Assembly (NCBI GenBank): GCA_039583875.1
Contig: CM077152.1
Location: 21,427,538 to 21,491,537 of the forward strand
From: Platanthera guangdongensis
Lineage: Eukaryota > Streptophyta > Magnoliopsida > Asparagales > Orchidaceae
Length of the DNA stretch: 64,000 bases
Direction of reading: 5' to 3'
The first letter of the stretch is position 1. Each line of letters opens with the position of its first letter. A model generated the notes under the pieces. It searched no databases. It saw only the letters and a list, made by a program, of their open reading frames with translations, and was not told where the DNA came from. A program made the position numbers and the translations under genes. Below, one piece after another: positions 22,560 to 50,208 of the stretch.

Positions 22560-23718
22560 GGGCGCCCCCTAGCGGGCGACCTGGGCGGACTCCGGGAGGA
22601 GTCCGCCCGGCAGGCCGGAGGCCGCCCCCTAGCGGGCGGCCTGGGCGGACTCCGGGTGGAGTCCGCCCGGCTGGAGCCGGGGCCGCCCCCTAGCGGGCGG
22701 CCTGGGCGGACTCCGGGTGGAGTCCGCCCGGCTGGAGCCGGGGCCGCCCCCTAGCGGGCGGCCTGGGCGGACTCCGGGAGGAGTCCGCCCGGCTGGAGCC
22801 GGGGCCGCCCCCTAGCGGGCGGCCTGGGCGGACTCCGGGAGGAGTCCGCCCGGCAGGAGCCGGGGCCGCCCCCTAGCGGGCGGCCTGGGCGGACTCCGGG
22901 AGGAGTCCGCCCGGCAGGAGCCGGGGCCGCCCCCTAGCGGGCGGCCTGGGCGGACTCCAGGGGGAGTCCGCCCGGCTGGAGCCGGGGCCGCCCCCTAGCG
23001 GGCGGCCTGGGCGGACTCCGGGAGGAGTCCGCCCGGCAGGAGCCGGGGCCGCCCCCTAGCGGGCGGCCTGGGCGGACTCCGGGAGGAGTCCGCCCGGCAG
23101 GAGCCGGGGCCGCCCCCTAGCGGGCGGCCTGGGCGGACTCCAGGGGGAGTCCGCCCGGCTGGAGCCGGGGCCGCCCCCTAGCGGGCGGCCTGGGCGGACT
23201 CCAGGGGGAGTCCGCCCGGCTGGAGCCGGGGCCGCCCCCTAGCGGGCGGCCTGGGCGGACTCCGGGTGGAGTCCGCCCGGCTGGAGCCGGGGCCGCCCCC
23301 TAGCGGGCGGCCTGGGCGGACTCCGGGTGGAGTCCGCCCGGCTGGAGCCGGGGCCGCCCCCTAGCGGGCGGCCTGGGCGGACTCCGGGAGGAGTCCGCCC
23401 GGCTGGAGCCGGGGCCGCCCCCTAGCGGGCGGCCTGGGCGGACTCCGGGAGGAGTCCGCCCGGCTGGAGCCGGGGCCGCCCCCTAGCGGGCGGCCTGGGC
23501 GGACTCCGGGTGGAGTCCGCCCGGCAGGAGCCGGGGCCGCCCCCTAGCGGGCGGCCTGGGCGGACTCCAAGGGGAGTCCGCCCGGCTGGAGCCGGGGCCG
23601 CCCCCTAGCGGGCGGCCTGGGCGGACTCCGGGTGGAGTCCGCCCGGCTGGAGCCGGGGCCGCCCCCTAGCGGGCGGCCTGGGCGGACTCCGGGTGGAGTC
23701 CGCCCGGCTGACGGGCAG
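22560..23718. repeat. Nineteen 61-bp tandem units, each with two inverted repeats
   Basis: Units begin at 22560, 22621 and every 61 bp to 23658. Each contains GGCCGCC...GGCGGCC (7-bp arms) and GGGCGGACTCC-N4-GGAGTCCGCCC (11-bp arms). Stems are constant; the four-base loop is GGGA, GGGT, AGGG or AAGG, and the linker is CTGGAG or CAGGAG. Loop/linker order shows a higher-order 183-bp repeat (units 5-7 and 8-10). Degenerate units continue to about 23830. The unbroken open frames across it are by-products of its composition. Confidence 0.95.
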
Positions 23719-25699: not shown

Positions 25700-25847
25700 T
25701 GTAGAAGGCGCTCGAAACATCCGGAGGAAAGTCTAAGTGGAACCTTACTCTCCGTTGTCCCCAGCTAGGTATATATATATGGTTAAACCTAGGGTTTAAT
25801 ATGCACAAAGCCCACAAGCCCGTTATTCGTCCGAATATACACTTACA
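25700..25847 (-). repeat. Copia-A 3' LTR
   Basis: Reads TGTAGAAGGCGCTCG to ATACACTTACA on the plus strand; differs from the 5' LTR at two bases (in the GCACAAAGCCCAC region). Confidence 0.95.
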
Positions 25848-26622: not shown

Positions 26623-29600
26623 TCATATTTCTATGAACTTTAATCTCATTTCCCCCGATGTTTTGATTGTGAGAGCTCTATTTAATCCTTTAGTAAGGGC
26701 GTCTGCAACATTATCTTTTGACCTCACATCAACGAGGTTCACAATCCCTTGAGTCGTAAGGGAGGTCAACCAGGCTTGTTTCATCCGTAGTTGCCTTCTT
26801 TTGCTATTGAACAACGTGTTCGTAGCAATCGTTTTAGTAGCCTGATTGTCGCAGTAAACTGCAACAGAACTCAGTTTCAGGCTCGACAGTGGAATGTCCA
26901 TCACCAAATCTCTTATCCACTCTGCCTCTTCACCAGCTGAAGCTAGAGCATAGAGTTCGGATTCCATAGATGAGAGTGCAATGCACGACTGTCTCTTGGA
27001 CTTCCAGGCTACAGCTGCTCCTCCTAGTGTGAAGAGGAATCCACTAGTGGACTTGCTGTCGTTTACTTTTGAGCACCATGATGCATCAGAATATCCTTCC
27101 AGAACTGGAGGATGACCATTATAACATAAAGCATACTGTCGGGTGTGCTTTAAGTATCGCATCAGCCTATCGAGGGCATCCCAATGGTCTTGGCTAGGAT
27201 TGCTAGTGAACCTACTTAACATGCCGACCGTAAAGGCTATGTCAGGTCTTGTACAGACCATAGCGTACATGAGGCTACCAAGCAGTTTAGAATAATCTAA
27301 CTGTCGAACCGCAGCACCATCATTGGGCTTTAAGCGGTTAGAATAATCGTATGGTGTCTCAGCCGCTTTACGTTCACTGTATCCCCACGTGTCCAACATG
27401 GACTGGATGTAGTGGCTTTGACTTAGGGAAATGCCATGTTTCCCAAAGCTCACTTGCATACCTAGTATAGTGTCAACTACACCGAGGTCTTTAATGCTAA
27501 ACGTCTGCATTAGTTCCGACTTAACGTCATCCACCACGGATTGATCAGAACCAAGAATCAGCATATCATCCACGTACAAGCATATTATGGCGACGTTGTC
27601 TGATCTATGACGTATGTAAAGACATTTGTCCGAGAGACTCGACTTGAATCCCATGTTCTTTACAGTATAGTCAAACTTCTCATGCCATAATTTTGGTGCT
27701 TGTTTTAATCCGTATAGCGATTTTAAAAGCTTACAGACCTTGTTTTCGTGACCGTGTACAATGAAACCTTCAGGTTGACTCATGTAGATCTCTTCGGTCA
27801 GATCTCCGTTCAAGAACGCAGTCTTAACATCCATTTGATGAACAACAAAGTTCTCAATGACCGAAATAGCAAGAAGAACTCTAATGGTTGCTAAGTGACA
27901 CACGAGTGAGTATACATCAAAGTAGCCTACTCCGCTTACTTGTGTGAAACCTTTAGCCACCAGGCGTGCTTTATACTGAGCTACGCTACCATCGGGATTT
28001 AGTTTCCTTTTCAGAACTCACTTGCACCCTACAGTTTTAGCCCCTGTTGGCTTATCAACTAACGTCCAGGTGTCGTTCTGAAGGAGAGAGTTCATCTCAT
28101 CCTCAATAGCTTCTTTCCAGAGTAGGGAATCCCTTGATCTCATCGCTTCCTTAAAGGTAGATGGATCATCCTCAACGTGGTAAGTGACAAAATCACTACC
28201 GAAGGTTCTGGGGGTTCTCTCTCTCACTGAAGTCCTCCTAGACTCTAGGCCAGAGTTATCTACCGGAACAGAATAGGAGGTGCTCGGTACTGATTCAGGA
28301 ACTTCCTCAGTAATAGTTGCTTGCATACCTGGGATTATTAGGTTCTTGTCTTTGAGGAACTTATCCTCGAAGAACACTGCATCCCTAGATTCTATTATGA
28401 TATTATTAGACAGGTCTAAGAATCTATCTGCAGCACTATCTTCAGCACAACCTAAGTAGACACATGTATTGGTCCTAGGTCCAACCTTAGACCGTCTAGG
28501 GTCAGGAACCCTGACATAGGCTAAACAGCCCCAGGTCTTAAGTCTAGTTAAAGACGGGGGTCGCTTAAACCAAAGCTCGTAGGGTGTAACCTCTAACTTA
28601 GCATGAGGAACTTTATTCAAAATGTGATTCGCAGTCAAGACTGCTTCTCCCCAATAAGCGGAAGGCATGCCTGCAGTGAGCAGCATAGAGTTCAACATCT
28701 CTGTTAACGTTCTATTTTTGCGCTCGGCTATGCCGTTAGATTGGGGGGAGTAAGGAGCAGTGGTTTCTGCGATGATGCCCTGTGAAGCAAGGAAGCATCT
28801 GAACTCACTGGACATGTATTCTCCTCCTCGATCACTCCTAAATCTCTTTATTTTCATGCTTAATTGGTTTTCTACCCTGGTTTTGAAAAGGCAAAATTTT
28901 TCAAACGCTTCGTCTTTAGTTTTAAGCAACGAAATATGACAAAACCTTGTGCAGTCATCTATGAACGTGATCATATACTTCCTTCCACCTATAGTGACAA
29001 AACTCTTAAAGTCACAAAGATCGGAATGTATAAGCTCAAGAGGTGTTGTGCTCCTAGTAACCGTGCCAAAAGGTTTCCTAGTGATCTTAGTCTGAGCACA
29101 CACTTCACATTTTCCAAGAGGAGACTTAGTGTCTAATGTGATCTTGTGAGTTCTAGCGACTTGGAACATTTTCCTGTAGTTTACGTGTCCTAGTCTCTCA
29201 TGTAGAGTCCTAGGGCTAACTAAATTCAATTGAACTTGTTGCACTACCTCATTTGCTAGACTCAGACGGTACATCCTATTTTGGACGTAGGCACATCCAA
29301 AGTAGTGAGAGTTAACTGACAGAGTCACTCTACCGCTACAAAAAGTAACTGACATACCAGCATCACACAACAAACTAATAGACACTAAGTTAACAGATAA
29401 AGAAGGAATAAATTTTACGTTCTTTAAAAGTAAAGACTTACCTGAGGAGAGCAACAGAGTTGCGTTCCCCACCTTCAATGCGTCAGCTGTTCCTCCATCT
29501 GCTACAGTCACTGATTCCTTTGCATTCTTCAGCCCTGTCAAGAGATTAGCATTGTTGCAAACATGGCACGTTGCCCCAGAATCTAGGAACCACTCTGTGC

Positions 29601-30489
29601 TGGCTTGCTCGTGTCCGACCATGGCAACAAAGTCGGATGGCTCAGCTTGACTAACCAGATGAGCCTGGTTGCCCTCTTGTGGTGCCTTAGTTCTTTCCTT
29701 CCTCGGTAACTTGCAGTCAGATGCACAGTGTCCCCACTTGTTGCAGTTAAAACATTTACCCTTAAATTTCTTAGAGGGTCTACTCGGTCCTGCAACCTGA
29801 GGGCTACTACGAGACGGTTTGGTCTTGTGAGGGGGAGGAGCACGCTTAGAGCTTGAAATCATGTTGGCAGCAGCTTTCTGCTTGCCAACAGCTTCCAAGG
29901 CGTGCTTCGTCCTGTTCTCATCCTCAATGCGTATGAAACGCTTGAGGTCGTTCAGACCAACCTGCATCTTCTTGCGGTACATCTCCGTTTTGAAATTGTA
30001 CCACGAGGATGGCAACTTATACACAATTGTGCCCGCAACAAAACTATCTGGCAGACTAATAGACTCACTATGCAGAGAATCAACCAAATTTTCAAATTCG
30101 GATACCTGAGGGAGAATGGCTTTCTCCTCGTCGAAGCTGAAGGAGTGGAACTTGTCCATCAGATGAGCCTTGGAGAGGTCCTCCTCCTGCTTGAAGTGCT
30201 CCTCCAGTGCTTCCCAGATCTCCTTACCAGACTGCATCTTGATGTAGTTCTTGGCCAGGCTGGAGGATAAGCAGTTCAGCAGGTAATCCCTGCAGAAGTC
30301 CTCATCTTCGACCCAATGCGCCTCATCTTCAGTCCCAGCAACGTCAGCACGAGTAGACTTGATGGTGTAGAAAACGTTCAGGTATTTCATCCCGAACTGG
30401 GTGTTCAACTTCCAATCATTGAACTCTGTGGCAGTGAACTTCTCCAATTTGTTCATGGGTACTGGAGAGGACAAGCTGGAGTTCCTCAT
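26623..30489 (-). pseudogene. Copia-A gag-pol polyprotein, open except one TGA
   Basis: I start at the ATG at 30487-30489 (MRNSSLSSPVPMNKLEKF); the frame is open further upstream but only through leader repeats. Of 1,288 codons, one is an internal stop: TGA at 28018-28020 (about codon 824) where the RT-entry motif CKW needs tryptophan. Order: UBN2 gag (about 15-200), zinc knuckle CFNCNKWGHCASDC (about 244-257), protease WFLDSGATCHV (about 297), pre-integrase LHERLGHVNYRKM (about 430), integrase DDE (D near 486, RSDRGGEY near 549, E near 585), RT with [11 protein letters not shown] and an intact YVDD (about 975), and RNase H with [18 protein letters not shown] and VADALTKGL. It encodes everything for autonomous movement apart from the stop, a G-to-A change from TGG. 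Confidence 0.95.
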
Positions 30490-30589
30490 CTTGACGGAAA
30501 AACAGAGAGTAAAGAGGATCTCGACTGGATCGGCAACCTTGCCGAAAGAGACAATGCAGCAGGGAAGAGGCGATCGACGATCGGGAGAG

Positions 30590-30950
30590 AGCGATCGACT
30601 ACTGGGAAAAACAATCGTCGAACGTGAAAGCGCAGACGTTGAGCGCTGGACGATCGTCGAACGTCGACAGGGAAACGTCGAACGTCGACCGGGAAGCAAT
30701 CGTCGAACGTCGACCGGGAAGCGATCGTCGAACGTCGACCGGGAAGCGATCGTCAAACGTTGACCGAGAAACGATCGTCGAGCGGGAAGACGATCGTCGA
30801 ACTGGAATCGTCGACCGGGGATCGTCGACCGGGGATCGACGATCGGGGAACGTCAACCGGGGATCGACGATCGGGGAACTGCCAGGCGATCGTCGAACGG
30901 GCGATCGTCGACCGGGATCTGCTAAGCGATCGTCGAACGGAAGCCCTGGT
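30590..30950. repeat. Degenerate minisatellite of about 25 bp in copia-A leader
   Basis: About a dozen units of the type CGATCGTCGAACGTCGACCG lie between the 5' LTR and gag. The core CGACGATCGTCG is palindromic. Unit length and sequence drift along the array. Copia-B lacks it. Confidence 0.8.
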
Positions 30951-31290: not shown

Positions 31291-31321
31291 TGTTTCGAGA
31301 ATGTAGAAGGCGCTCGAAACA
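31291..31321 (-). other. Inverted repeat across the copia-A LTR/leader junction
   Basis: Nine-base arms TGTTTCGAG (31291-31299) and CTCGAAACA (31313-31321) with a 13-base loop that contains the LTR end (31302). It occupies the place where a tRNA primer site is expected. Copia-B has an equivalent with different arm sequence (41063-41099). Confidence 0.8.
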
Positions 31322-31449
31322 TCCGGAGGAAAGTCTAAGTGGAACCTTACTCTCCGTTGTCCCCAGCTAGGTATATATATATGGTTAAACCTAGGGTTTA
31401 ATATGCGCAAAGCCCCCAAGCCCGTTATTCGTCCGAATATACACTTACA
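31302..31449 (-). repeat. Copia-A 5' LTR
   Basis: 148 bp with the same ends as the 3' copy. A minus-strand TATATATATA box is at about 31372-31382, about 80 bp before the LTR end, so R and U5 together can only be some 50 bp. Confidence 0.95.
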
Positions 31450-31612
31450 ATAAATAATGTAAAAAATAAGTCATTGTTGTCATCATGTGTTGTGCCATCA
31501 GTAAGAAATGCTCAAATGCTGCTCATAGATAAATGATATCTGTCTTATGGCTGAGACAGACGGGCGATTTTGCACCAGAATTCATTGCCCTTGTAAGAAA
31601 TGTTGCTATTCT

Positions 31613-32170
31613 CTAGATTTTAGTGTAGATTGTGGGTTGGATATACCTCTTAAGAAAAGCGTCCCCGAACTCTTCCACTGACGGGGTGCGTCCCGGAAAC
31701 TGGCGGCCGCTATGGCTCACCCACCACAACTTGGCGTCTCCTTCCAATATGAACGCCGCATACTCAGCTTTCTTTTCCTCTGGCGTCTCTGCCGCCCTTA
31801 ACAGTTCTTGAATGCGAACCCACCAGTCTTCCGCATCCGTTGGCGTTCCGACACCCTTGAAAGACGGGGGATGGAAACTCAGGAAATACTTCATGTGTCG
31901 GTCTCCATGTCCAACAACTACTCTCTCCGCCAAAGGCTCCACTCGCCTGGCTTCTGTTCCTGGCACGGCCGTTGCCGTATCTGGTGTGGCAGGGGCTGCC
32001 ACCTGAGCCGCTGCTGCAGCCTGAGCTGCCACCATCGCTTCTGCAAGCATGCGGCAGAAGTCGGCCGGGTCTACACCCGTGCCCAAAAGACCTGGAGCAG
32101 TAGCACTGCTCGCTGAGAGATCATCCCTTGCTCTTGAAGTGCCCGCCTCGTTGCTTGCACTCTTCAGGAA
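31613..32170 (-). pseudogene. Ty3/gypsy gag fragment
   Basis: A frame without an ATG opens after a stop near 32205 and carries the retrotransposon gag signature: MKYFLSFHPPSFKGVGTPTD, EDWWVRIQELLRAAETPEEK, YAAFILEGDAKLWW and FGDAFLKRYIQPT. Gag would form the particle core. It is preceded by a primer site (32280-32294), so this is the 5' end of a gypsy element; it is cut off near 31620 and the rest of gag and pol are absent. Confidence 0.85.
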
Positions 32171-32279
32171 GACAAGAATAAGGGATTAGTCTCCAATCTC
32201 AAGACTAAAACATAAGGACACTCATGGTCCCGCGTTACTCTTATGTGGATAACTTCTCTACGCACTGACCTTGAATCTA

Positions 32280-32457
32280 ACCTGGCTCTGATACCAAATT
32301 GTAACACCTCCCCTGTAATGGACGTATAATATGGGTCCGGCCGGGGCCCCACAACATACGAACGCCACAGCTTTAGCATTAAAAGTTGATATAGCTACCC
32401 AAACTCAAAACACTTGCACAACACAGCGGAAAACCAAGCACAACTAGAAGTTATCCA
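32280..32457 (-). repeat. Gypsy primer site and 5' LTR end
   Basis: The minus strand reads TGGTATCAGAGCCAGG (about 32280-32294) just inside an LTR end that reads TGTAACACCTCCCCTG from 32299 on the plus strand. The LTR seems cut at about 32457 by the next element. Confidence 0.65.
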
Positions 32458-33287
32458 CTAACTCGGTTGGCCTGCAGAGACAGTTTTTGCATCTAATGCA
32501 GCCGGTATCTCTCCTACATGATAGACCTGCGGAAAGAGGTCAATGGGATAGGAGGTCCAGTCGATGGTCAGGTACTTGATCTTCAGGATGGTCTGGATGA
32601 CTCCTCCCAAAGGGAGTGTATTTACCCGCTGACGATCGGGGGACTTGAGGAGAAAAGTATACCTCATGATAGACAGGATGAGATCTGAAACGCTGAATGG
32701 CTTCTGCGCTATAATGTGATAGGTCACCATGGATAGCTGAGCCGTGATCTTTCGAGTATCTCCTGCCTTGAACATCAGCGAATGGCGGAGGATATCCTGA
32801 ATTATCCGAGCAACTGGTGTGAGTGTGTCCACCGAAGTGAAAAGTCAGGACGCCCCTCCGCTCCATGGAGAACCTCGTTCATCACTCTCCAATCCCGTGC
32901 TGTCCTGAAGGATTCTACAACATCCAAGTATGGAAGGTTGGATGGCCACACGTACTTCGTCTCCAGGTCGGCATGGGTGATAGTAACTATCTCATCCCCG
33001 ATGCAAGACTGAACTCCTCCTCCCAGACGCATCAGAGATGGATCCCTCAAGTTGTTGTAGAACTCTCGAACGAGAGCGGAGGAAAAGGAACACCCATCTG
33101 ATATCACCGCCAACACGCCCGATTCTTCGAGATACTCATAGATATGAGTATACCGATCATCAATTTCTATGAGCATAGGAATGCTCACAGTGGCGTTGTC
33201 TATAGCGGGGTGCGTAGTCTCTCCACGGTTTCGTTTTGAAATACTTCGACGTCCAGAGTGTGCGCTCGAGGAGGCCATTTCCTGCAT
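32458..33287 (-). pseudogene. Plant putative transposon protein, frameshifted
   Basis: Two frames overlap at 32802-32832. The first (33287-32802) opens MASSSAHSGRRSISKRNRGE and carries SSALVREFYNNLRDPSLMR and VTITHADLETKY. The second (32832-32458) carries TPVARIIQDILRHSLMF, LSMVTYHIIAQKPFSVSDLI and LPLGGVIQTILKIKYLTID. This matches, as I recall it, the plant-specific putative transposon protein domain seen in many retroelement-rich plant genomes; its function is unknown. A single frameshift near 32815 splits it. Confidence 0.55.
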
Positions 33288-34000
33288 GAAACAACATTCA
33301 AAAACTCAAATCAGGAACTGGGATCCAAAACTGAAAATTCACAAAAATTGAGTGAAATCTGGGAGCTATCACAGGCGATAATTAGCTATCACCGGCGGTA
33401 GCTCGACGGACTGCACTTCACCTCTTTCCGCCGTTTTGAGCTAAAAATCGATTTCTTTTGTAAAAACCACTCCAATCTCCATGTTTTTCATAGATCTATA
33501 TATGAACTTCGTAGATCTTGAAAGAGGAGATGAGATCCGACAATAAACATCTAAAAATGAAACATGTGAAAGTATCTCTTTTTACTCCTCCGCATCTCGA
33601 ATCCTTTACAAACAATGACAATATTTTTCACCTCTTAAAGCGTAGATCCGAAATAGACTAAAACAATGGCAATATGTTTTCAAAAAGGGGGATATGTGAG
33701 AGGAGATCCATGAAGAAGTGGATATAAAAATGCCATGAGAGAACACATCTACTCCACAAAGACATCTCATATGGATCCTAAAAACAAGAAATTAAGCAAA
33801 AATGAGAAAGGATAGAGCATTACCTGGAATCAAAGGAGATCTGTAGGGCTGGAGAAGCTTCTTTCCAAAAGGGGATGCAAGGTGAGAATGAGTGTGGGCG
33901 GATCTGAAATAACCTACAGCATATTTATTCTGGAGTTACCGCGGCGCGGTAGTACTACCGACAGGCGATAGTACTCTGACTCGCATATAAGTACACACGA
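33288..34000. other. Spacer with GGCGGTA/ATCGCC palindromic words
   Basis: No gene. Words such as CTATCACCGGCGGTAGC (about 33388) and GCGGCGCGGTAGTACTACCG (about 33940) resemble the palindromes inside the Sirevirus LTR at 35580-37236, which suggests further Sirevirus-derived DNA. Confidence 0.4.
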
Positions 34001-35250
34001 AAATCATGCTTATCCAACCTGTTTTGACAAGGCTAGGGAATATCTTAAGGTGTCCATATAGTAGACAAATGGTGGTCGTTTTAGGGCCAAAGTGCGTTTT
34101 TTTTTATCTCATGGGGGCTCATATGACCGAGTCGTGGTATATTTTCAAGTATATACAATGTTTGCTAATCTTTTTGTCAATTTGTACGGCACATTGGTAT
34201 CCTGTCATGATGAGCGAAGTTAAATTTTTGTCTAGCTATTGAGTGCGAAAATTAATGTGGGTGTACGTTGTCTATGCCTCTAAGTATGTGTGAGGATTTA
34301 TTTACGATAATGATTACACCTCTCACACACCACTTGATCATGCACTCAACCTGAGATAATAAGCTGACATGCTATAAATCGTGACACTAACTTTAACATA
34401 TCTGATATATCTTGAACAATCAATGTCATGAAATCAAATTGCGCGTGTCTATGCTAATTAAATTTTTGGGCCAAAACTAGAAAGGCATATGTCCAATGTA
34501 AACAAGTTAAAGTGGATCTACCTATGTGGGTAGATTTCGATTGACTTGGGGTCTTGTTCTGCTTTGATTATGTATAAAGTTGATGGCCTAACTCCAAAAT
34601 AAAATGATGGCCATCAAATCCCGCTTACAGACCCCCCAAGCACTACTCATCCCTCCTGATAAGTCTTCATAAGCGTTGTGAGGGTGAGCACCTTGGATTA
34701 CAAAGTCGTTTCGATCTTGTGCATGGACTACACTTTATGATTTGTGCCCTTGATTTAATTTCTTTATGCCGCACTATGTCATGTGACGTGATTTTTCACT
34801 ATATCTCTTTGGTGTTAGCATCGTTAGTTTGCTTGATATAAAACATGTCTGCATGATATCTCTATTGAATGTTTTGTCTCTTGGTGCTACACGTGCACAT
34901 GTCATTATCTTATTTAAATCTTCCGCGCATAAGAATTGGACCTCAACTACATTCGATGCTTTTCGCACAATACGTACTGACACATTTTTTTCTCTCATGA
35001 CGATATTTGTGTTTGCCTATTTTTCTCTCTATTTATCTAAACCCTGCAAACATTCATGTCATACTTGATGTGTGCTATGTCTCGTGCATATAGTCCATTT
35101 TCTTCACTCTGATTAGCGTTTGCTCCTGATTTTGACCCTGTTTTACAATTCTCTGATTTCAAGTGCTGTGTAGGTCTATATTACGTTATCTCTCGCCTAC
35201 AATTTTCATCCTCCTTGGTCGGTTGGCCTCGCCCATTCTTTTGATATTAT
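34001..35250 (+). other. Sirevirus 3' non-coding region
   Basis: No supported frame. By position it precedes the purine-tract array and the 3' LTR of the plus-strand Sirevirus. Gag-pol of that element is absent from the window. Confidence 0.5.
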
Positions 35251-35579
35251 CAAAGGGGGAGAAGGTATTGGAGGTAGTGTTCATGATAGGGGGAGCGTAT
35301 TGAGGTGTGTGTGTGCTCATAGATAGGGGAGCGTCCCACCGATAGGGGGAGTATGTAGTAGGATAGAACAGGATTGAACGGGATCGATATATGTGTGTAT
35401 TTGCTTATTTGTTCAATATCATTTTACTCTGATACTCTACTTTATACTGTTCTACGTTCATTTTACTCTGATACTCTACTTTATACTGTTCTACGTTGCT
35501 ACATACATCTATTCTGGCACTCTATCTACTTGATTTTGGTTTATCATGAACGGGATTGATATTATCAAAAGGGGGAGTT
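35251..35579 (+). other. Multiple polypurine tracts of a Sirevirus
   Basis: Five tracts precede the LTR: AAAGGGGGAG (about 35252-35261), GATAGGGGGAG (35285), GATAGGGGAG (35322), GATAGGGGGAG (35341) and AAAAGGGGGAGTT (about 35566-35579) abutting the LTR TG. Repeated polypurine tracts are a published hallmark of Sireviruses. They prime plus-strand DNA synthesis. Confidence 0.8.
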
Positions 35580-35982
35580 TGTTGGAACATGGTTTCACAC
35601 TCCTTAGGTTTGAGAATATCAACTCCCTGCTTGTATTTGATGAGATTGGTTGTGTGATAGAGTGTGCAGGCTGATAGGTGAAAGGAAAGGAGAAGAGCTT
35701 CAAAAGGTTACTACCGCCCGGCGACAACCTTATCGCAGCGCGGTAACCATCTCGATCGACGCTTATCGGTTCGATGGTCGACAACCCATTTATCAGCTAA
35801 GGAAGGATCGTCGACAATCAAAAGCTACCGCCCGGCGACAGGACGCTACCGCCGGCGGTATCCGGTCGACGTGCATCGAGGGGACGATCGTCGACGATGG
35901 TACCTACCGCTCAGGCGATAGTCTTATCGCAGGCGGTAGAATTATTTGGCGAAATGGCGCTATCGCTCTGACTGGGCGCGGT

Positions 35983-36206
35983 AACCTTTACCGCCCGGCG
36001 ATAGCTCTCTTGAAACGGCAGTTTCCTTAATGAGCAGCTATAGTTGCCGTTTCGGGAGACGTGTGGAGACAGCTGGCAGGCGTTACGCGGTAACCATTAC
36101 CGCCCGGCGATAGCTCTCTTGAAACGGCAGTTTCCTTAATGAGCAGTTATAGTTGCCGTTTCGGGAGACGTGTGGAGACAGCTGGCAGGCGTTACGCGCG
36201 AACCTA
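35983..36206. repeat. Tandem duplication of about 108 bp in Sirevirus U3
   Basis: CCGCCCGGCGATAGCTC starts at 35991 and again at 36100; a third start without the rest lies at 36207. Each copy contains AAACGGCAGTTTCC and GTTGCCGTTTC, an inverted pair. Confidence 0.9.
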
Positions 36207-36690
36207 CCGCCCGGCGATAGAGTTATCGCAGGCGGTAGTCTATTTTCTCCAAGACGTATAAAAAGCAGCGCCGTTTCCTCAAGACCTAAGCCTCCAGAGA
36301 TTATTGACGAAGTGCTCCAGGAATACTAAGTTCGGCCGTCTTCCTACGTCCGTTCTACTCGTCTTCGTCAAAGAAAAAGCAAGGCTTCTTCCTCCCGTTC
36401 GAGATCGAAGAACTCCGGCGATCAAGGCTTCGCATCGTCTACGTCTAGCGACCGGGTGCTTTCCATCGAAGATCACAAGCACCGGCCGTAGATCTATCCG
36501 GAGAACTTCTCAAGAGGGAGAACCTAAACTTTAACGAATATATTTTGTAATCTCTTTTTGTATCTTTTTCTTCTTCTATTGTTGTAAGTGGTAAGGGAAA
36601 TCGACCGGGGAAGGTCGTCGGGATCCGGGTTGGATTCCGTGGAAAATCGTCCCGGGATTTGGGGCGTCTAGATCGGGGATCTAGCGGTGC

Positions 36691-36830
36691 TCTAAGACCC
36701 TTCCGGTTGTGGAGGTGAAGAGCGGCTCTAAGACCTTTCGGGGAGAAAGTGAAGAGCGGCTCTAAGACCCTTCCGGGTGTGGAGGTGAAGAGCGGCTCTA
36801 AGACCTTTCGGGGAGAAAGTGAAGAGCCAA
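36691..36830. repeat. 70-bp tandem repeat, two copies, in Sirevirus R/U5
   Basis: Copies start at 36691 and 36761, each made of two related 35-bp halves (TCTAAGACCCTTCCGG and TCTAAGACCTTTCGGG). Confidence 0.9.
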
Positions 36831-37236
36831 CCGGTCCGGGTTTTGGGTCGGTATAGAAAACCCAAGAGTTTTATTCACCGCCTCTGATCTCCGGCGTCAT
36901 GGAGATCCATGTTGTATGTATTGTGTGTAAACATGGTTTAAATCAATCCTAATTACAAGTGTAACATTGTGTGTGACTAAATGATTCATATGAGATATTG
37001 TCTTCATATCATTGCCTCTTATGTTTACTTGTGAATGATAAGTCTAGTTTCACGTGTGTGCGCACAAGCTAATTTGTACAGGAAAAGAGTGAATAACGTA
37101 CCGCAGAACATTGGTTACCCAACGCTCTGCAGTAGTTTCCTATGCTCTGGTTCTGTGGACAAATTAACGCTTAAATTTCAAGAAACGCGTCGAACCTTAT
37201 TCACCCCCCCTCTAAGGTTGGCTACAAGATCCAACA

Positions 37237-40149
37237 ATATAGGCATATGATGACTGTTTGATTTGCCAACGAGCGGTAGTAGAGGCACTTGCCTGAGAGA
37301 CTGGACTGAAATCCAACGCTCTTTACCACTTGATCAAATTTAATGTGCCACATCTTAGGTGCTTGTTTAAGCCCATAGATCGATTTATCGAGCTTGCACA
37401 CTTTGTCTCTTAAATCCTTGTGCACATAGCCTTCAGGTTGTGCCATATAGATCTCTTCATCAAGCTCTCCATTTAAGAAGGCTGTTTTTGCATCCATCTG
37501 ATGAACTAAAAAGTTCTCGATAGAAGCTATGTCAAGAAGAATCCTAATAGTGGATAGGTGACACACAGGTGAATAGACGTCAAAATAGTCAATTCCCCCC
37601 TGTTGTTTATAACCCTTAGCTACTAGACGTGCTTTATATCTGGCTATAGACCTATCACTGTGCAATTTCTTCTTCAGTACCCACTTGCATCCTAAGACTT
37701 TAGCTCATTTCGGCAGGTCAACTAGATGTCAAGTGTTGTCTTGTAGCAGCGAGTTCATCTCATCATCGATGGCTTCTGCCCACATTAACGCATCTCTGGA
37801 TCACATTGCTTCCTGATAGGAGAATGGATCATCCTCTAAGTGGTAGGTGACAAAATTCTCACCAAAATTCTTAGGGATTCTATCTCTTGTAGATACTCTA
37901 AGAGGAACAGCTTCCACCTGTAGAGGTTGGGGAGCAATGCCAGAGGGGTTAGCTTCAGGTTCTTCAGTAGATTCTGAAATCATGTCAGTAGACCCGGAGA
38001 CGGTCAAGCCATGATCTTTAATAAATTTGTGTTCAAAGAAAATATCATCTCTAGATTCTATCACTGTATTAGTGGATAGATCCAGAAATCTGTCAGCTGC
38101 ACTATCTTCTGCACTACCTAGATAAACGCAGGTCGTTGTTCTAGGTCCCACCTTTGGTCTCTTAAGGTCTTGTATCCTTACATAAGCGATACAACCCCAA
38201 GTATTTAGAGTGTCATATATACAAGGATGACCATGCCACAACTCATATGGAGTAGAGTTGAGCTTTGAGTGAGACACTCGATTTAGAATGTGATTTGCAG
38301 TTAGAACTGCTTCCCCCAAAAAAGAATTAGGCATGCCAGTTGTGAGGAGCATAGAGTTCAACATTTCTGTTAAAGTTCTATTCTTACGCTCAGCAACACC
38401 ATTCGACTGGGGTGAGTAAGGAGCTGTGGTTTCTAGGATTATACCCTCAGAGGCACAAAAGTCCTTAAACCCAATTGCAGTGTACTCTCCTCCTCGATCA
38501 CTTCTAAGTCTCTTAATCTTTACATTTAATTGATTTTCTACCCGAGATTTGAAGATCTTAAAGGTCTCGAATGTCTCATCTTTCAATTTCAATAGGTAAA
38601 CATGACAATATCTGGAAAAATCGTCGATGAATGTAATTAGATACTTCCTTCCCCCTCTAGTGGCGTGACTACGAAAGTCACAGAGGTCGGAATGTATCAA
38701 CTCCAGAAGTTGTGTGCTCCTAGAAACTGTCTTGTAAGGGTTTCTAGTGATCTTAGTCTAGGCACAAACCTCACACCTATCAAACTGAATAGAAAGATCT
38801 AATGGAATGTTTTGACTTTTAGCTAGATCTCGCATTTTCTTATAGTGGATATGTCCAAGTCTATTGTGTAATAACTTTGGATCAATCAGAGTTGAACTCA
38901 CTTGATTTATGCAGAAGTTATCTAGGCTAAGTCTATACATACCATTGATCAGGTAAGCGCAACCAAAATAGTGAGAATTAACAGTTAATGTCATTCTACC
39001 GTTCACGGTTGTGAAAGACATTCCGGCTTTATCAAGCAAACTCATAGAAATCAAATTCTTAGTTAAATTATGAACTACTTTAACATTTTGCAAAATTAAA
39101 GTTTTATCTGAAGAGAGCACTAGCTCTGCAGTCCCAGCATGAGTAACATCAGTCGCTCCTCCATTGCAGTTTTCGACTCTATCCTTGACTGCTGTGACCT
39201 TTGAGAGAAGACTCCTATCATTTGTGACGTGACAGGTAGCACCACTGTCCAGCCACCACTCAGAAGACGCACTGCGGTGACTACTCTCAATCATAGCCAC
39301 GAAGGACTTAGGATCGGAGTTGTCGACCACCATGTGCGCCACATTTTGTGGGGCATCCTCTTTTAGCTTCTTCGGACCCCTGCATTCAGCGGCCTAGTGA
39401 CCCCATTTGCCGCAGTTGTGGTACTTGCCCTTCTTCCTTTTGAGTGAAGGCTTTTTGACCGCCAACGGTGCTGGAGTATCACCCTTAGGTGTCGGGGGCT
39501 TCCGAGAAGGCTTACTAGGACGTGAAACAAAGTTGACAGCCTGTGTGGGCTGCGCAACCTGCTCCAAGCTTTTCCCAGCAATGTTTTGGTCTTCAATATG
39601 GATGAACCTTTTGAGTTCATCCAAACTGATCTTCTCTTTCAGTCGGTGCATCTCGGTCTTGAAAAAGAGCCATTCAGGAGGCAGTTTACTCAGGATCATG
39701 TACACAAAGAGGCTGTCGTCCATCTTCGAATGATCATCATCCAGCTTCTGACGAAGATTGACCAGCTCCAAGAGTTGAGAAGTGATAGGCATGTTCGCTT
39801 TGAACCTGAAGTTGAAGAACTTCTCTCCAATGAGCGACTTTGACAATCCTTCCTCCTTCTGGAAATGCGCGTTCAGTCGATCCCATATCTCCTTTGCAGA
39901 TTTGTAAGCGTGGTAGGTCAACGCAAGCCGGGGATTCAGAGAATTTAACAGGTAATCCCTGCAGAAATCTTCATCCTTGTTCCACTGGTACTCGTCCACG
40001 TCCTCGACGGTGGAGGCAAAATCGCTCTGAACAGTATAGAAGATCTCACGTTCCTTCATTCCTAGTTGGACTTGAATTTTTCAACTGAGAAAGTCGGAGG
40101 CGTCGACCGATTGCAATTTTATTGTGTCGAGCGCGCTTTTCTTTGACAT
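37237..40149 (-). pseudogene. Copia-B gag-pol, truncated at the RT catalytic box
   Basis: A relative of copia-A. It starts at an ATG (40147-40149), hits a TGA at a position where copia-A has tryptophan (FNDW), then reads gag (EDFCRDYLLNSLNPRL), a zinc knuckle CGKWGH (about 39410), protease WWLDSGATCHV (about 39260), pre-integrase LLHNRLGHIHYKKM (about 38840), integrase (HSDLCDF near 38690; RSDRGGEY near 38500; AERKNRTL near 38390) and RT through QMDAKTAFLNGEL to ICLY, where the Sirevirus LTR begins. Stops near 39394, 38758, 37800 and 37700 break it. At six stop positions I compared with copia-A, most fit single C-to-T or G-to-A changes. Confidence 0.9.
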
Positions 40150-41074
40150 AGTTCTAGATTTAAAACAGAAATAAAAAAATTCTAGAACAAAGTCACCTGA
40201 GCCCGTGAAGATGTCAGAAAAAACCTTCAGATCCAATTCAGTAATTATTTGCACTTCCTGTCTGACTGAACGCAGTCACCGAATACCAGATTCGATCACA
40301 ACTGAAGCTGAGATATCATAGGACAACTAGCAATGCTCTGGAAATAGAATCTCTAGTTGGATTAATCCTGCAATTGAGTAGATCTGGAATGACTTGATCT
40401 AATTTTCCAAGCAATCTTCCTACAGGAAAACCTCCAATTAGGTCACGGGATAATGGCTTGAGTGTCCATCGCTTTCCCTGGATATAATCTTCCAAGTGGC
40501 GTGAGACTGGATCTGCAAACAGGAATAACCCTAGATTTCCTGTAGGCTGGAGAAAGTTAGGTCTGCTTCCTGGTTTGATCGGCAGAGGACCACCTCTTCC
40601 AGCAAAGAGAAACGCACGATCTGATAGTGCGAAGGAGAAAAACGCGCGATCCGACAACCCGGACGAGAGGTGCAGAGCAGGGAAGCGACGATCGGAAGAT
40701 CTGCTGTGGCGCTGGGGTCAACACCGAGATCTGCAGTGGATTTGGTCGATCTTCCTCTTCCGATCGTGGGCGGCGATGGAAGCATAATCCACCGGCGATC
40801 TACAGGCGGCGGAAGTCCTGATCGGCAAACCTGCAGCGGCTTGCGACGGGGTGCGCAGAGATGTTCGCAAGAGGCGCAAGAACGAACGACGGAAAAAGCC
40901 GATCCCGGTTCCTCCTTTCTTGCGATCCGGCTGCCACTCCAGATAAAAACAAAGGATGCGATCTCCTTTGCAGATCACGAGCACGGAAGCGGCGACTGTA
41001 GCGGACGGGAGAGGGAGAGCGCGGTAGACTGAGAGCGAACGGGAGAGCGAAACCCTAAACGGCTATCTTGAGAA
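40150..41074 (-). other. Copia-B 5' leader
   Basis: Non-coding region between the 5' LTR and gag; no tRNA-Met primer site and no minisatellite seen. GC-rich near 40560-41000. Confidence 0.6.
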
Positions 41075-41099
41075 TGTTAGAAGGCTCCGCTCAAGATAG
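41063..41099 (-). other. Inverted repeat across the copia-B LTR/leader junction
   Basis: Ten-base arms CTATCTTGAG (41063-41072) and CTCAAGATAG (41090-41099), loop 17 bases. Same placement as the copia-A hairpin but different arm sequence; the loop word AATGTTAGAAGGC is shared. Confidence 0.8.
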
Positions 41100-41238
41100 T
41101 CCACTAAGACTCATCGGTGTGGAATGACCTTATATAGTATCTCCAGCGTAGAGCCGTTACACTCTAGTGACACATAACCCGTTGGGTCGTTCCGAGTCGG
41201 TCCTGACACGCGCGGACATATAATTAAATATTCTAACA
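41075..41238 (-). repeat. Copia-B 5' LTR
   Basis: 164 bp, TGTTAGAAGGCTCCG to TATTCTAACA on the plus strand. A minus-strand TATATAAGG box lies at about 41115-41124, only about 40 bp from the LTR end. The 3' LTR is not in the window. Confidence 0.85.
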
Positions 41239-50196: not shown

Positions 50197-50208
50197 TGGT
50201 ATCAGAGG

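What the first reader, a model, noticed from the sequence alone, without database searches (positions are those of the whole stretch)
31291..41099. Covarying stem at the LTR/leader junction of two copia elements, in place of a tRNA primer site
Copia-A and copia-B have very short LTRs (148 and 164 bp) and nothing like TGGTATCAGAG after the 5' LTR, although copias elsewhere in this window do (8739, 12063, 24533, 50197). Instead both have an inverted repeat straddling the LTR end: TGTTTCGAG/CTCGAAACA in A (31291-31321) and CTATCTTGAG/CTCAAGATAG in B (41063-41099). The arm sequences differ between the two but pairing is kept, while the loop word (AATGT-AGAAGGC) is conserved. In B the LTR-side arm lies about 38 bases from the TATA start, near the expected transcript 5' end. 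That resembles the arrangement of self-primed elements such as Tf1 of fission yeast, where the RNA 5' end anneals to the primer site. Inference: this lineage may use a self-primer or an unusual primer.
Basis: partly seen in the sequence, partly recalled or inferred. Interest (0 to 1): 0.8.

Follow-up and report, generated by a model that had tools for sequence, protein, structure and literature searches.

The report
Self-primer site in orchid copia elements
A group of copying DNA elements in what looks like an orchid genome seems to start its copying step from a nine-letter piece of its own RNA instead of a borrowed cell tRNA, and the two matching pieces change together between families, which supports an idea so far only predicted for plants.

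Summary
The stem is real and recurs in the family copies examined. Two Ty1/copia elements on the minus strand (A: 5' LTR 31302-31449, 148 bp; B: 41075-41238, 164 bp) lack the tRNA-Met site after the LTR. Two nt (TT) after the LTR's CA stands a 9-nt block that is the reverse complement of a 9-mer lying 11 (A) or 15 nt (B) before the LTR end. Copies from the same 4.2-Gb genome give four families with different arms (TGTTTCGAG, TATCTTGAG, TACTTTGAG, TGCTTCGAG); four of nine pairs change on both sides. Pairing ends at 9 bp: a tenth pair occurs in 11 of 57 B and 0 of 27 A junctions. Of 30 elements found by gag alone, 29 show the junction and all 29 pair 9/9. Best reading: a 9-nt self-primer binding site. 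One copy (L094) carries antisense 3'-LTR sequence inserted exactly after the 9 nt, as if a primer had been captured. Self-priming was already predicted for the plant TAR lineage (Neumann 2019), so this is a new variant of a known kind: very short LTRs, tiny U5, fixed 9 bp. Transcript ends, the cut and the primer itself are not shown. Not every copy is perfect (L002, L049, L066, L111).

The parts
31302..31449 (-). 5' LTR of element A (148 bp, TGTAAG...TTCTACA)
25700..25847 (-). 3' LTR of element A (98.7% identity to the 5' LTR in the 152-nt alignment; TSD TTTAT on both sides)
31313..31321 (-). A, LTR-side arm / putative self-primer (sense TGTTTCGAG)
31302..31312 (-). A, U5 between primer arm and LTR end (sense CGCCTTCTACA)
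31300..31301 (-). A, 2-nt spacer TT between LTR end and putative primer-binding site
31291..31299 (-). A, putative self-primer binding site (sense CTCGAAACA)
26623..30756 (-). A coding region: gag, Pol_BBD, integrase core, then RVT_2 reverse transcriptase (copia order); two frames, 28018-30756 and 26623-27960
41075..41238 (-). 5' LTR of element B (164 bp, TGTTAGAA...TTCTAACA)
41090..41098 (-). B, LTR-side arm / putative self-primer (sense TATCTTGAG)
41075..41089 (-). B, U5 between primer arm and LTR end (15 nt)
41073..41074 (-). B, 2-nt spacer TT
41064..41072 (-). B, putative self-primer binding site (sense CTCAAGATA)
37222..40080 (-). B coding region in several separate open frames: gag, integrase and RT matches; no 3' LTR found in the window

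Best explanation
The 9-nt block 2 nt inside the 5' LTR is a primer-binding site for a piece of the element's own RNA. RNA ending in the LTR-side arm (...T[GA][TC][TC]T[CT]GAG-3'OH), probably made by a cut directly after GAG as RNase H does in Tf1, pairs with CTC...A and is extended through TT and the U5 (usually 10-17 nt), giving a very short minus-strand strong-stop DNA. The plus strand later copies the primer, so the site in the new DNA equals the complement of the LTR arm; this explains near-perfect pairing, concerted change and the sharp 9-nt limit. Shown: the pairing, its position, its covariation, its limit. Inferred: the cut, the priming, and whether the primer comes from the RNA 5' end (likely in B and C), from further inside (A, D) or from a 3' LTR.
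For: Position fits a primer site: CA|TT directly before the block in 29 of 29 readable gag-ascertained junctions of 30 loci, all pairing 9/9 (26 TATCTTGAG, 3 TACTTTGAG); 25 of the 29 were located by an LTR-side word alone, 4 by the word CATTCTC with up to one mismatch. Four families, four arm pairs; 13 rows counted, 3 of them imperfect (L049, L066, L111): 97.4% of cells paired, 20 cells with changes on both sides, covariation score 0.444 (each 0 of 500 shuffles), sliding by 1-3 columns gives at most 58% paired. Sites GAG-N4..26-CATTCTC in 364 kb of held sequence, where only the GAG/CTC pairs are demanded: 105 rows pair 9/9. Pairing stops: tenth pair in 11 of 57 B junctions and 0 of 27 A junctions. 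No TGGTATCA in the following 139 nt of 80 distinct leaders (78 full length). Genome-wide the architecture with a 10-nt U5 occurs 129 times against 1 for the pattern read backwards. L094: 79 of 79 nt palindrome about the stem, and antisense 3'-LTR/PPT/interior inserted exactly after the 9 nt in a copy with an open 1299-aa frame.
Against: No transcript, primer or strong-stop data. 9 bp is short; the hairpin is not unusually stable in A and is absent from B's predicted fold. In one search two measures do not exceed the shuffles: number of pairs with a change on both sides (4; reached by 195 of 500) and further pair types (6; reached by 500 of 500); the structure was read from these rows. The control has only 6 rows (none above 5/9). 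Imperfect copies exist: L002 (extra T), L049, L066 (8/9), L111 (7 pairs plus one G-U, in a copy with a 1286-aa open frame). In A and D the arm is 55-60 nt from the TATA word, so not at the expected RNA 5' end. Four families from one genome are few independent changes; C and D rest on 3 and 2 perfect junction loci, and L099 and L100 are near-duplicates. L094 is a single copy and could be a later chromosomal rearrangement.
Confidence: 0.75

Rival explanations
1. The stem is a structural RNA hairpin (packaging, dimer or U5-leader stem like the U5-IR of retroviruses), and an unknown primer binds elsewhere.
For: Covariation fits a structure as well as a primer; Tf1 too needs duplexes beside the primer duplex (PMC10085805, passages).
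Against: No TGGTATCA in 80 distinct leaders, though other tRNA words were not tested and 26 of the 80 have some TGG within 40 nt; B leaders are otherwise poorly conserved apart from one block (gaps counted as differences); fold energy of A not unusual and B's fold omits the stem; Watson-Crick pairing with G-U only in L111 and L049, and exactly the place expected of a primer site.
Confidence: 0.13
2. A tRNA fragment or other host small RNA primes, as in half-tRNA copias (Bianca, Osser); the LTR match is secondary.
For: Half-tRNA primers occur in plant copias (PMC6317226, passages). The host tRNA set could not be searched here.
Against: Four different 9-mers would need four host RNAs, each of which happens to match the element's own LTR. 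A full tRNA 3' end (CCA) does not fit a site that starts with CTC.
Confidence: 0.06
3. A DNA-level inverted repeat used by integrase or arising by template switching, without a role in priming.
For: It straddles the LTR end where integrase acts; L094 shows that the repeat can template a fold-back.
Against: The outer end of A's 3' LTR lacks the second arm (it is followed by the TSD); the U5 tip between the arms varies in letters and length.
Confidence: 0.04

Closest known systems
TAR lineage of plant Ty1/copia (incl. Houba, Osr1)
   Same: Plant copia; predicted self-priming from a 5'-LTR segment complementary to a site 0-5 bp after the LTR (PMC6317226, passages).
   Different: LTRs 148-164 bp against 965-968 bp in Osr1 and Houba (PMC1940013, passages); fixed 9 bp (the published search asked for at least 10); whether the proteins cluster with TAR was not testable here.
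Tf1/sushi elements (Tf1, Tj1, Tcn1)
   Same: Self-primer complementary to a site just after the 5' LTR (11 nt in Tf1, cut by RNase H; PMC7175516, PMC4600332, passages).
   Different: Those are Ty3/gypsy; the primer is at the RNA 5' end and a three-duplex 'pretzel' forms (PMC10085805, passages). Here U5 is usually 10-17 nt, leaving little room for it (inference; not modelled).
Fungal GalEa copia elements with a Conserved Hairpin Site
   Same: Copia without a tRNA site, hairpin at the LTR end (PMC5445492, passages).
   Different: That site is a palindrome including the last A of the LTR and its authors found no LTR complement; here the partner lies inside the LTR.
tRNA-Met-type copia at 50197(+) in this window
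   Same: The sequence before its primer site also ends TTCTAACA.
   Different: TGGTATCAGAG follows at once, without the TT spacer. Its LTRs were not mapped here.

Membership tests
Ty1/copia | gag, then integrase before reverse transcriptase | tested here: met
   A: gag_2, Pol_BBD, rve, SH3 in the first frame, RVT_2 in the second; B: gag_2, rve, SH3, RVT_2 in separate frames in the same order
TAR lineage | RT/RH/INT proteins cluster with TAR references | not testable with these tools
   no labelled reference proteins at hand; no look-ups in supplements allowed
TAR lineage | predicted self-primer: at least 10 bp complementary to 5' LTR, starting 0-5 bp after it | tested here: inconclusive
   start at +2 met; A has 9 bp, window B 10, B family 9
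tRNA-primed LTR element | TGG (tRNA CCA complement) 0-5 nt after the LTR | tested here: not met
   29 of 29 readable gag-ascertained junctions read TT plus CTCAAGATA or CTCAAAGTA there. The 0 of 89 is true by construction, since that set was chosen by the word CATTCTC.
half-tRNA-primed copia (Bianca, Osser) | site complementary to an internal tRNA cut end | not tested
   host tRNA set not obtained; window holds no tRNA gene
Tf1/sushi | Ty3/gypsy domain order | tested here: not met
   copia order
Tf1/sushi | self-primer at the RNA 5' end | tested here: inconclusive
   TATA-to-arm 37-40 nt in 57 of 59 B and 2 of 2 C junctions, 55-60 in 17 of 26 A (9 had no TATA word) and 2 of 2 D; no transcript data
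GalEa Conserved Hairpin Site | palindromic 9-mer including last A of the LTR | tested here: not met
   the site pairs with the LTR and is not such a palindrome in any of the four arm types

The most novel reading that the evidence does not exclude
The primer is not the RNA 5' end, as in Tf1, but RNA ending in the arm of a 3' LTR (interior-PPT-U3-R-arm-3'OH), acting in trans or as a panhandle. L094 would be a fossil of it: after the 9-nt site the element carries the antisense of R, U3, PPT and about 170 nt of 3' interior, as if a long 3'-LTR primer had been copied into the plus strand.
Probability: 0.2. Interest if true: 0.75.

Novelty: new variant of a known kind. Interest (0 to 1): 0.52.

Why it matters
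Self-priming was demonstrated for Tf1; for plant copia elements the papers I saw offer it as a prediction from sequence. Here it gains an evolutionary test: the LTR arm and the site change together across four families, over exactly 9 nt, beside a leader that is otherwise poorly conserved. The arrangement is minimal (148-164-bp LTRs, U5 usually 10-17 nt), which makes the first strand transfer hard to fit to the textbook scheme and gives a clear prediction for strong-stop DNA. It also tells annotation tools to look for LTR-complementary sites, even of 9 bp, when no TGG is found.

Tried and rejected
Rejected: full-length tRNA primer at the LTR edge; chance hairpin; co-variation of the U3 and U5 tips (U3 tip nearly constant, U5 tip variable); a special mutation hot spot just after the site (most of the leader is as variable, so I dropped this idea). 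Led nowhere: viral-contig scan found no relative; Rfam and tRNA scans of the window found nothing; seven 211-bp windows upstream of P0038-like gag hits missed the junction, and of three 801-bp windows two held it: L109 9/9 pairs, L111 7/9 plus one G-U; L110 had none. Not settled: TAR membership; host tRNAs; whether C and D hold in more copies; pairing in the 129 pattern matches, whose letters were not shown.

Rows dropped or fixed by construction: searches contain only junctions with exact pairing and the word CATTCTC, so their spacer (TT) and the absence of TGG at 0-5 nt are not evidence; the tenth pair, the U5 and the TATA distance are free there. The sets not chosen by pairing are (30 gag loci; 28 A loci; 30 B loci), the last two found by similarity to a stretch that includes the junction, where GAG and CTC are demanded. 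The sets include the window's own copies (L001, L029, L076), and some loci overlap. In one search, 29 of 30 B loci carry the exact site (L049 not), 27 of 28 A loci pair 9/9 (L002 not; recounted). in full: 105 rows at 9/9, 1 at 8, 4 at 7, 5 at 6, 7 at 5, 87 at 4, 2 at 3; most of the 4/9 rows are a second GAG in the U5 of the same B copies. L067 and L073 are chance pattern hits; L075 is an LTR followed by other sequence, picked by the pattern.
Full report
What is there. Elements A and B lie on the minus strand. A is a two-LTR copia: 5' LTR 31302-31449, 3' LTR 25700-25847, 98.7% identity in the 152-nt alignment, TTTAT on both sides, with gag, integrase and RVT_2 in copia order. B has its 5' LTR at 41075-41238, coding pieces in several frames and no 3' LTR found in the window. 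The window lies in a 4.25-Gb genome. Protein hits of A (80% over part of it) and of B gag (95%) are to Platanthera zijinensis, so the host is inferred to be a related orchid.

The junction. In transcript sense A reads TGTTTCGAG-CGCCTTCTACA|TT-CTCGAAACA and B reads TATCTTGAG-CGGAGCCTTCTAACA|TT-CTCAAGATA. The LTR ends with CA; after TT stands a 9-mer that is the exact reverse complement of the 9-mer before U5. Markov-shuffled leaders reach the observed length in 45 of 20000 (A) and 11 of 20000 (B) trials.

Other copies. Similarity searches gave 28 A loci and 30 B loci, the window's own copies included. 27 of 28 A loci pair 9/9 (L002 has an extra T in the arm), and 29 of 30 B loci carry the exact site (L049 does not). 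Those searches used the junction itself as part of the query. A set chosen without it came from a search with B's gag protein: of 30 loci (L076-L105, the window copy included) 29 show the junction, 25 of them located by an LTR-side word alone, and all 29 pair 9/9 behind CA|TT; in L102 other sequence lies upstream. Three of the 29 have a third arm, TACTTTGAG/CTCAAAGTA (L099, L100, L105; L099 and L100 are near-duplicates). A fourth, TGCTTCGAG/CTCGAAGCA, is in an element near a B copy (L071) and in L109, found with a different gag. L111, of that fourth type, pairs at 7 of 9 plus one G-U. The family letters A-D are mine.

Covariation and limit. Thirteen rows, three of them imperfect, give 97.4% paired cells (shuffles 88.0), 20 cells with changes on both sides (8.1) and a covariation score of 0.444 (0.237), each reached by 0 of 500 shuffles; four of nine pairs have double changes, a number that 195 of 500 shuffles also reach, and the count of further pair types is below the shuffles. 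Sliding the partner by 1-3 columns gives at most 58% (the structure was read from these sequences, which favours it against sliding). Demanding only GAG-N4..26-CATTCTC in 364 kb of held sequence gives 105 rows at 9/9 (overlapping loci counted more than once); the reversed-sequence control gave just 6 rows, none above 5/9. Pairing ends after the ninth base: a tenth Watson-Crick pair occurs in 11 of 57 B junctions, near chance, and in 0 of 27 A junctions. The B leaders beyond are poorly conserved apart from a TAGGGTTT block (gaps counted as differences). The U5 between the arms is 13-17 nt in 56 of 59 B junctions (others 6, 23, 25), 11 in 26 of 26 A, 16 in C and 10 in D. Genome-wide, the general architecture with a 10-nt U5 has 129 matches against 1 for the backwards pattern (the letters were not shown, so pairing at the free positions is not known).

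No tRNA-Met site. In the gag-ascertained set the first 11 nt after the LTR are TTCTCAAGATA or TTCTCAAAGTA. Past the site, TGGTATCA is absent from the next 139 nt of 80 distinct leaders, 78 of them held in full; other tRNA words were not tested, and 26 of the 80 have some TGG within 40 nt. Elsewhere in the window TGGTATCAGAG occurs exactly at 50197(+), 32286(-) and 24535(-).

A copy that may record the event. In L094 the LTR, U5, TT and the 9-nt site are followed at once by the exact inverse of the LTR upstream of the arm (79 of 79 nt, limited by the locus edge), then by the rest of the LTR in antisense (149 nt in all), the antisense PPT and about 170 nt of antisense 3' interior (94.7% to L074 over 75 nt just upstream of an LTR there); leader sequence like that of L082 (94.3% over 53 nt) then resumes, and the gag frame is open for 1299 aa. 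Either a plus-strand 3' end at the close of the site folded back on the arm and was extended, or a long primer ending in the arm was copied. Both use the stem as primer and template. A chromosomal rearrangement is not excluded, and it is one copy.

Mechanism. I take the block to be a self-primer binding site. In Tf1 the first 11 nt of the RNA pair with such a site and RNase H cuts after them (PMC7175516, passages; for Tj1, PMC4600332, passages). Copying of the primer by the plus strand would rewrite the site at every cycle, which explains matching, concerted change and the sharp limit better than selection on a hairpin does; the stem is in A's predicted fold but not in B's. The arm starts 37-40 nt after the TATA word in 57 of 59 B (38 nt in 47) and both C junctions, hence near an expected RNA 5' end, but 55-60 nt after it in 17 of 26 A (9 had no TATA word) and both D junctions, so the source of the primer is open.

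What is known. Neumann et al. 2019 (PMC6317226, passages) predict self-priming for the TAR lineage of plant copia, including Houba and Osr1. Those two have LTRs of 968 and 965 bp (PMC1940013, passages). I could not test whether A-D are TAR. Fungal GalEa copias have a hairpin in place of the primer site, without an LTR complement according to their authors (PMC5445492, passages). A 2025 review of the plant LTR-element life cycle describes tRNA priming, and its main text holds no word beginning 'self-prim' (PMC12786077, passages). In the listings of my searches I noticed no experimental test of self-priming in a plant copia; I saw listings and passages, not whole papers, and most subscription papers are not in that library. 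So: a new variant of a predicted kind, with comparative support and an unusually compact layout.

Noticed in passing
L094 (reverse complement, about 1-430): Perfect 79-nt palindrome centred on the stem; antisense LTR, PPT and 3' interior inserted exactly after the 9-nt site of a copy with an open 1299-aa frame.
   Followed up: partly
L088, L089, L097 (5' junctions): Duplications at the border of primer arm and U5: the arm repeated in L088, CTTGAGC repeated in L089 and L097; this is where a primer cut would lie.
   Followed up: no
B-family loci among L029-L105: The U3 tip (TGTTAGAATATTTAA) is nearly constant while the U5 tip before CA differs in letters and length.
   Followed up: partly
leaders of A, B, C: A TAGGGTT(T) block shortly after the site recurs in a leader that otherwise diverges; it resembles a common plant 5'-UTR motif (recalled).
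   Followed up: no
22583-23705: Tandem array: the same 9-bp inverted repeat recurs 19 times at a spacing of about 61 bp.
   Followed up: no
35977-36194: 109-bp tandem duplication, 98% identical.
   Followed up: no
50197 (+): TTCTAACA followed directly by TGGTATCAGAG: same tip as B's LTR, but a tRNA-Met site at offset 0 instead of TT plus self site.
   Followed up: no
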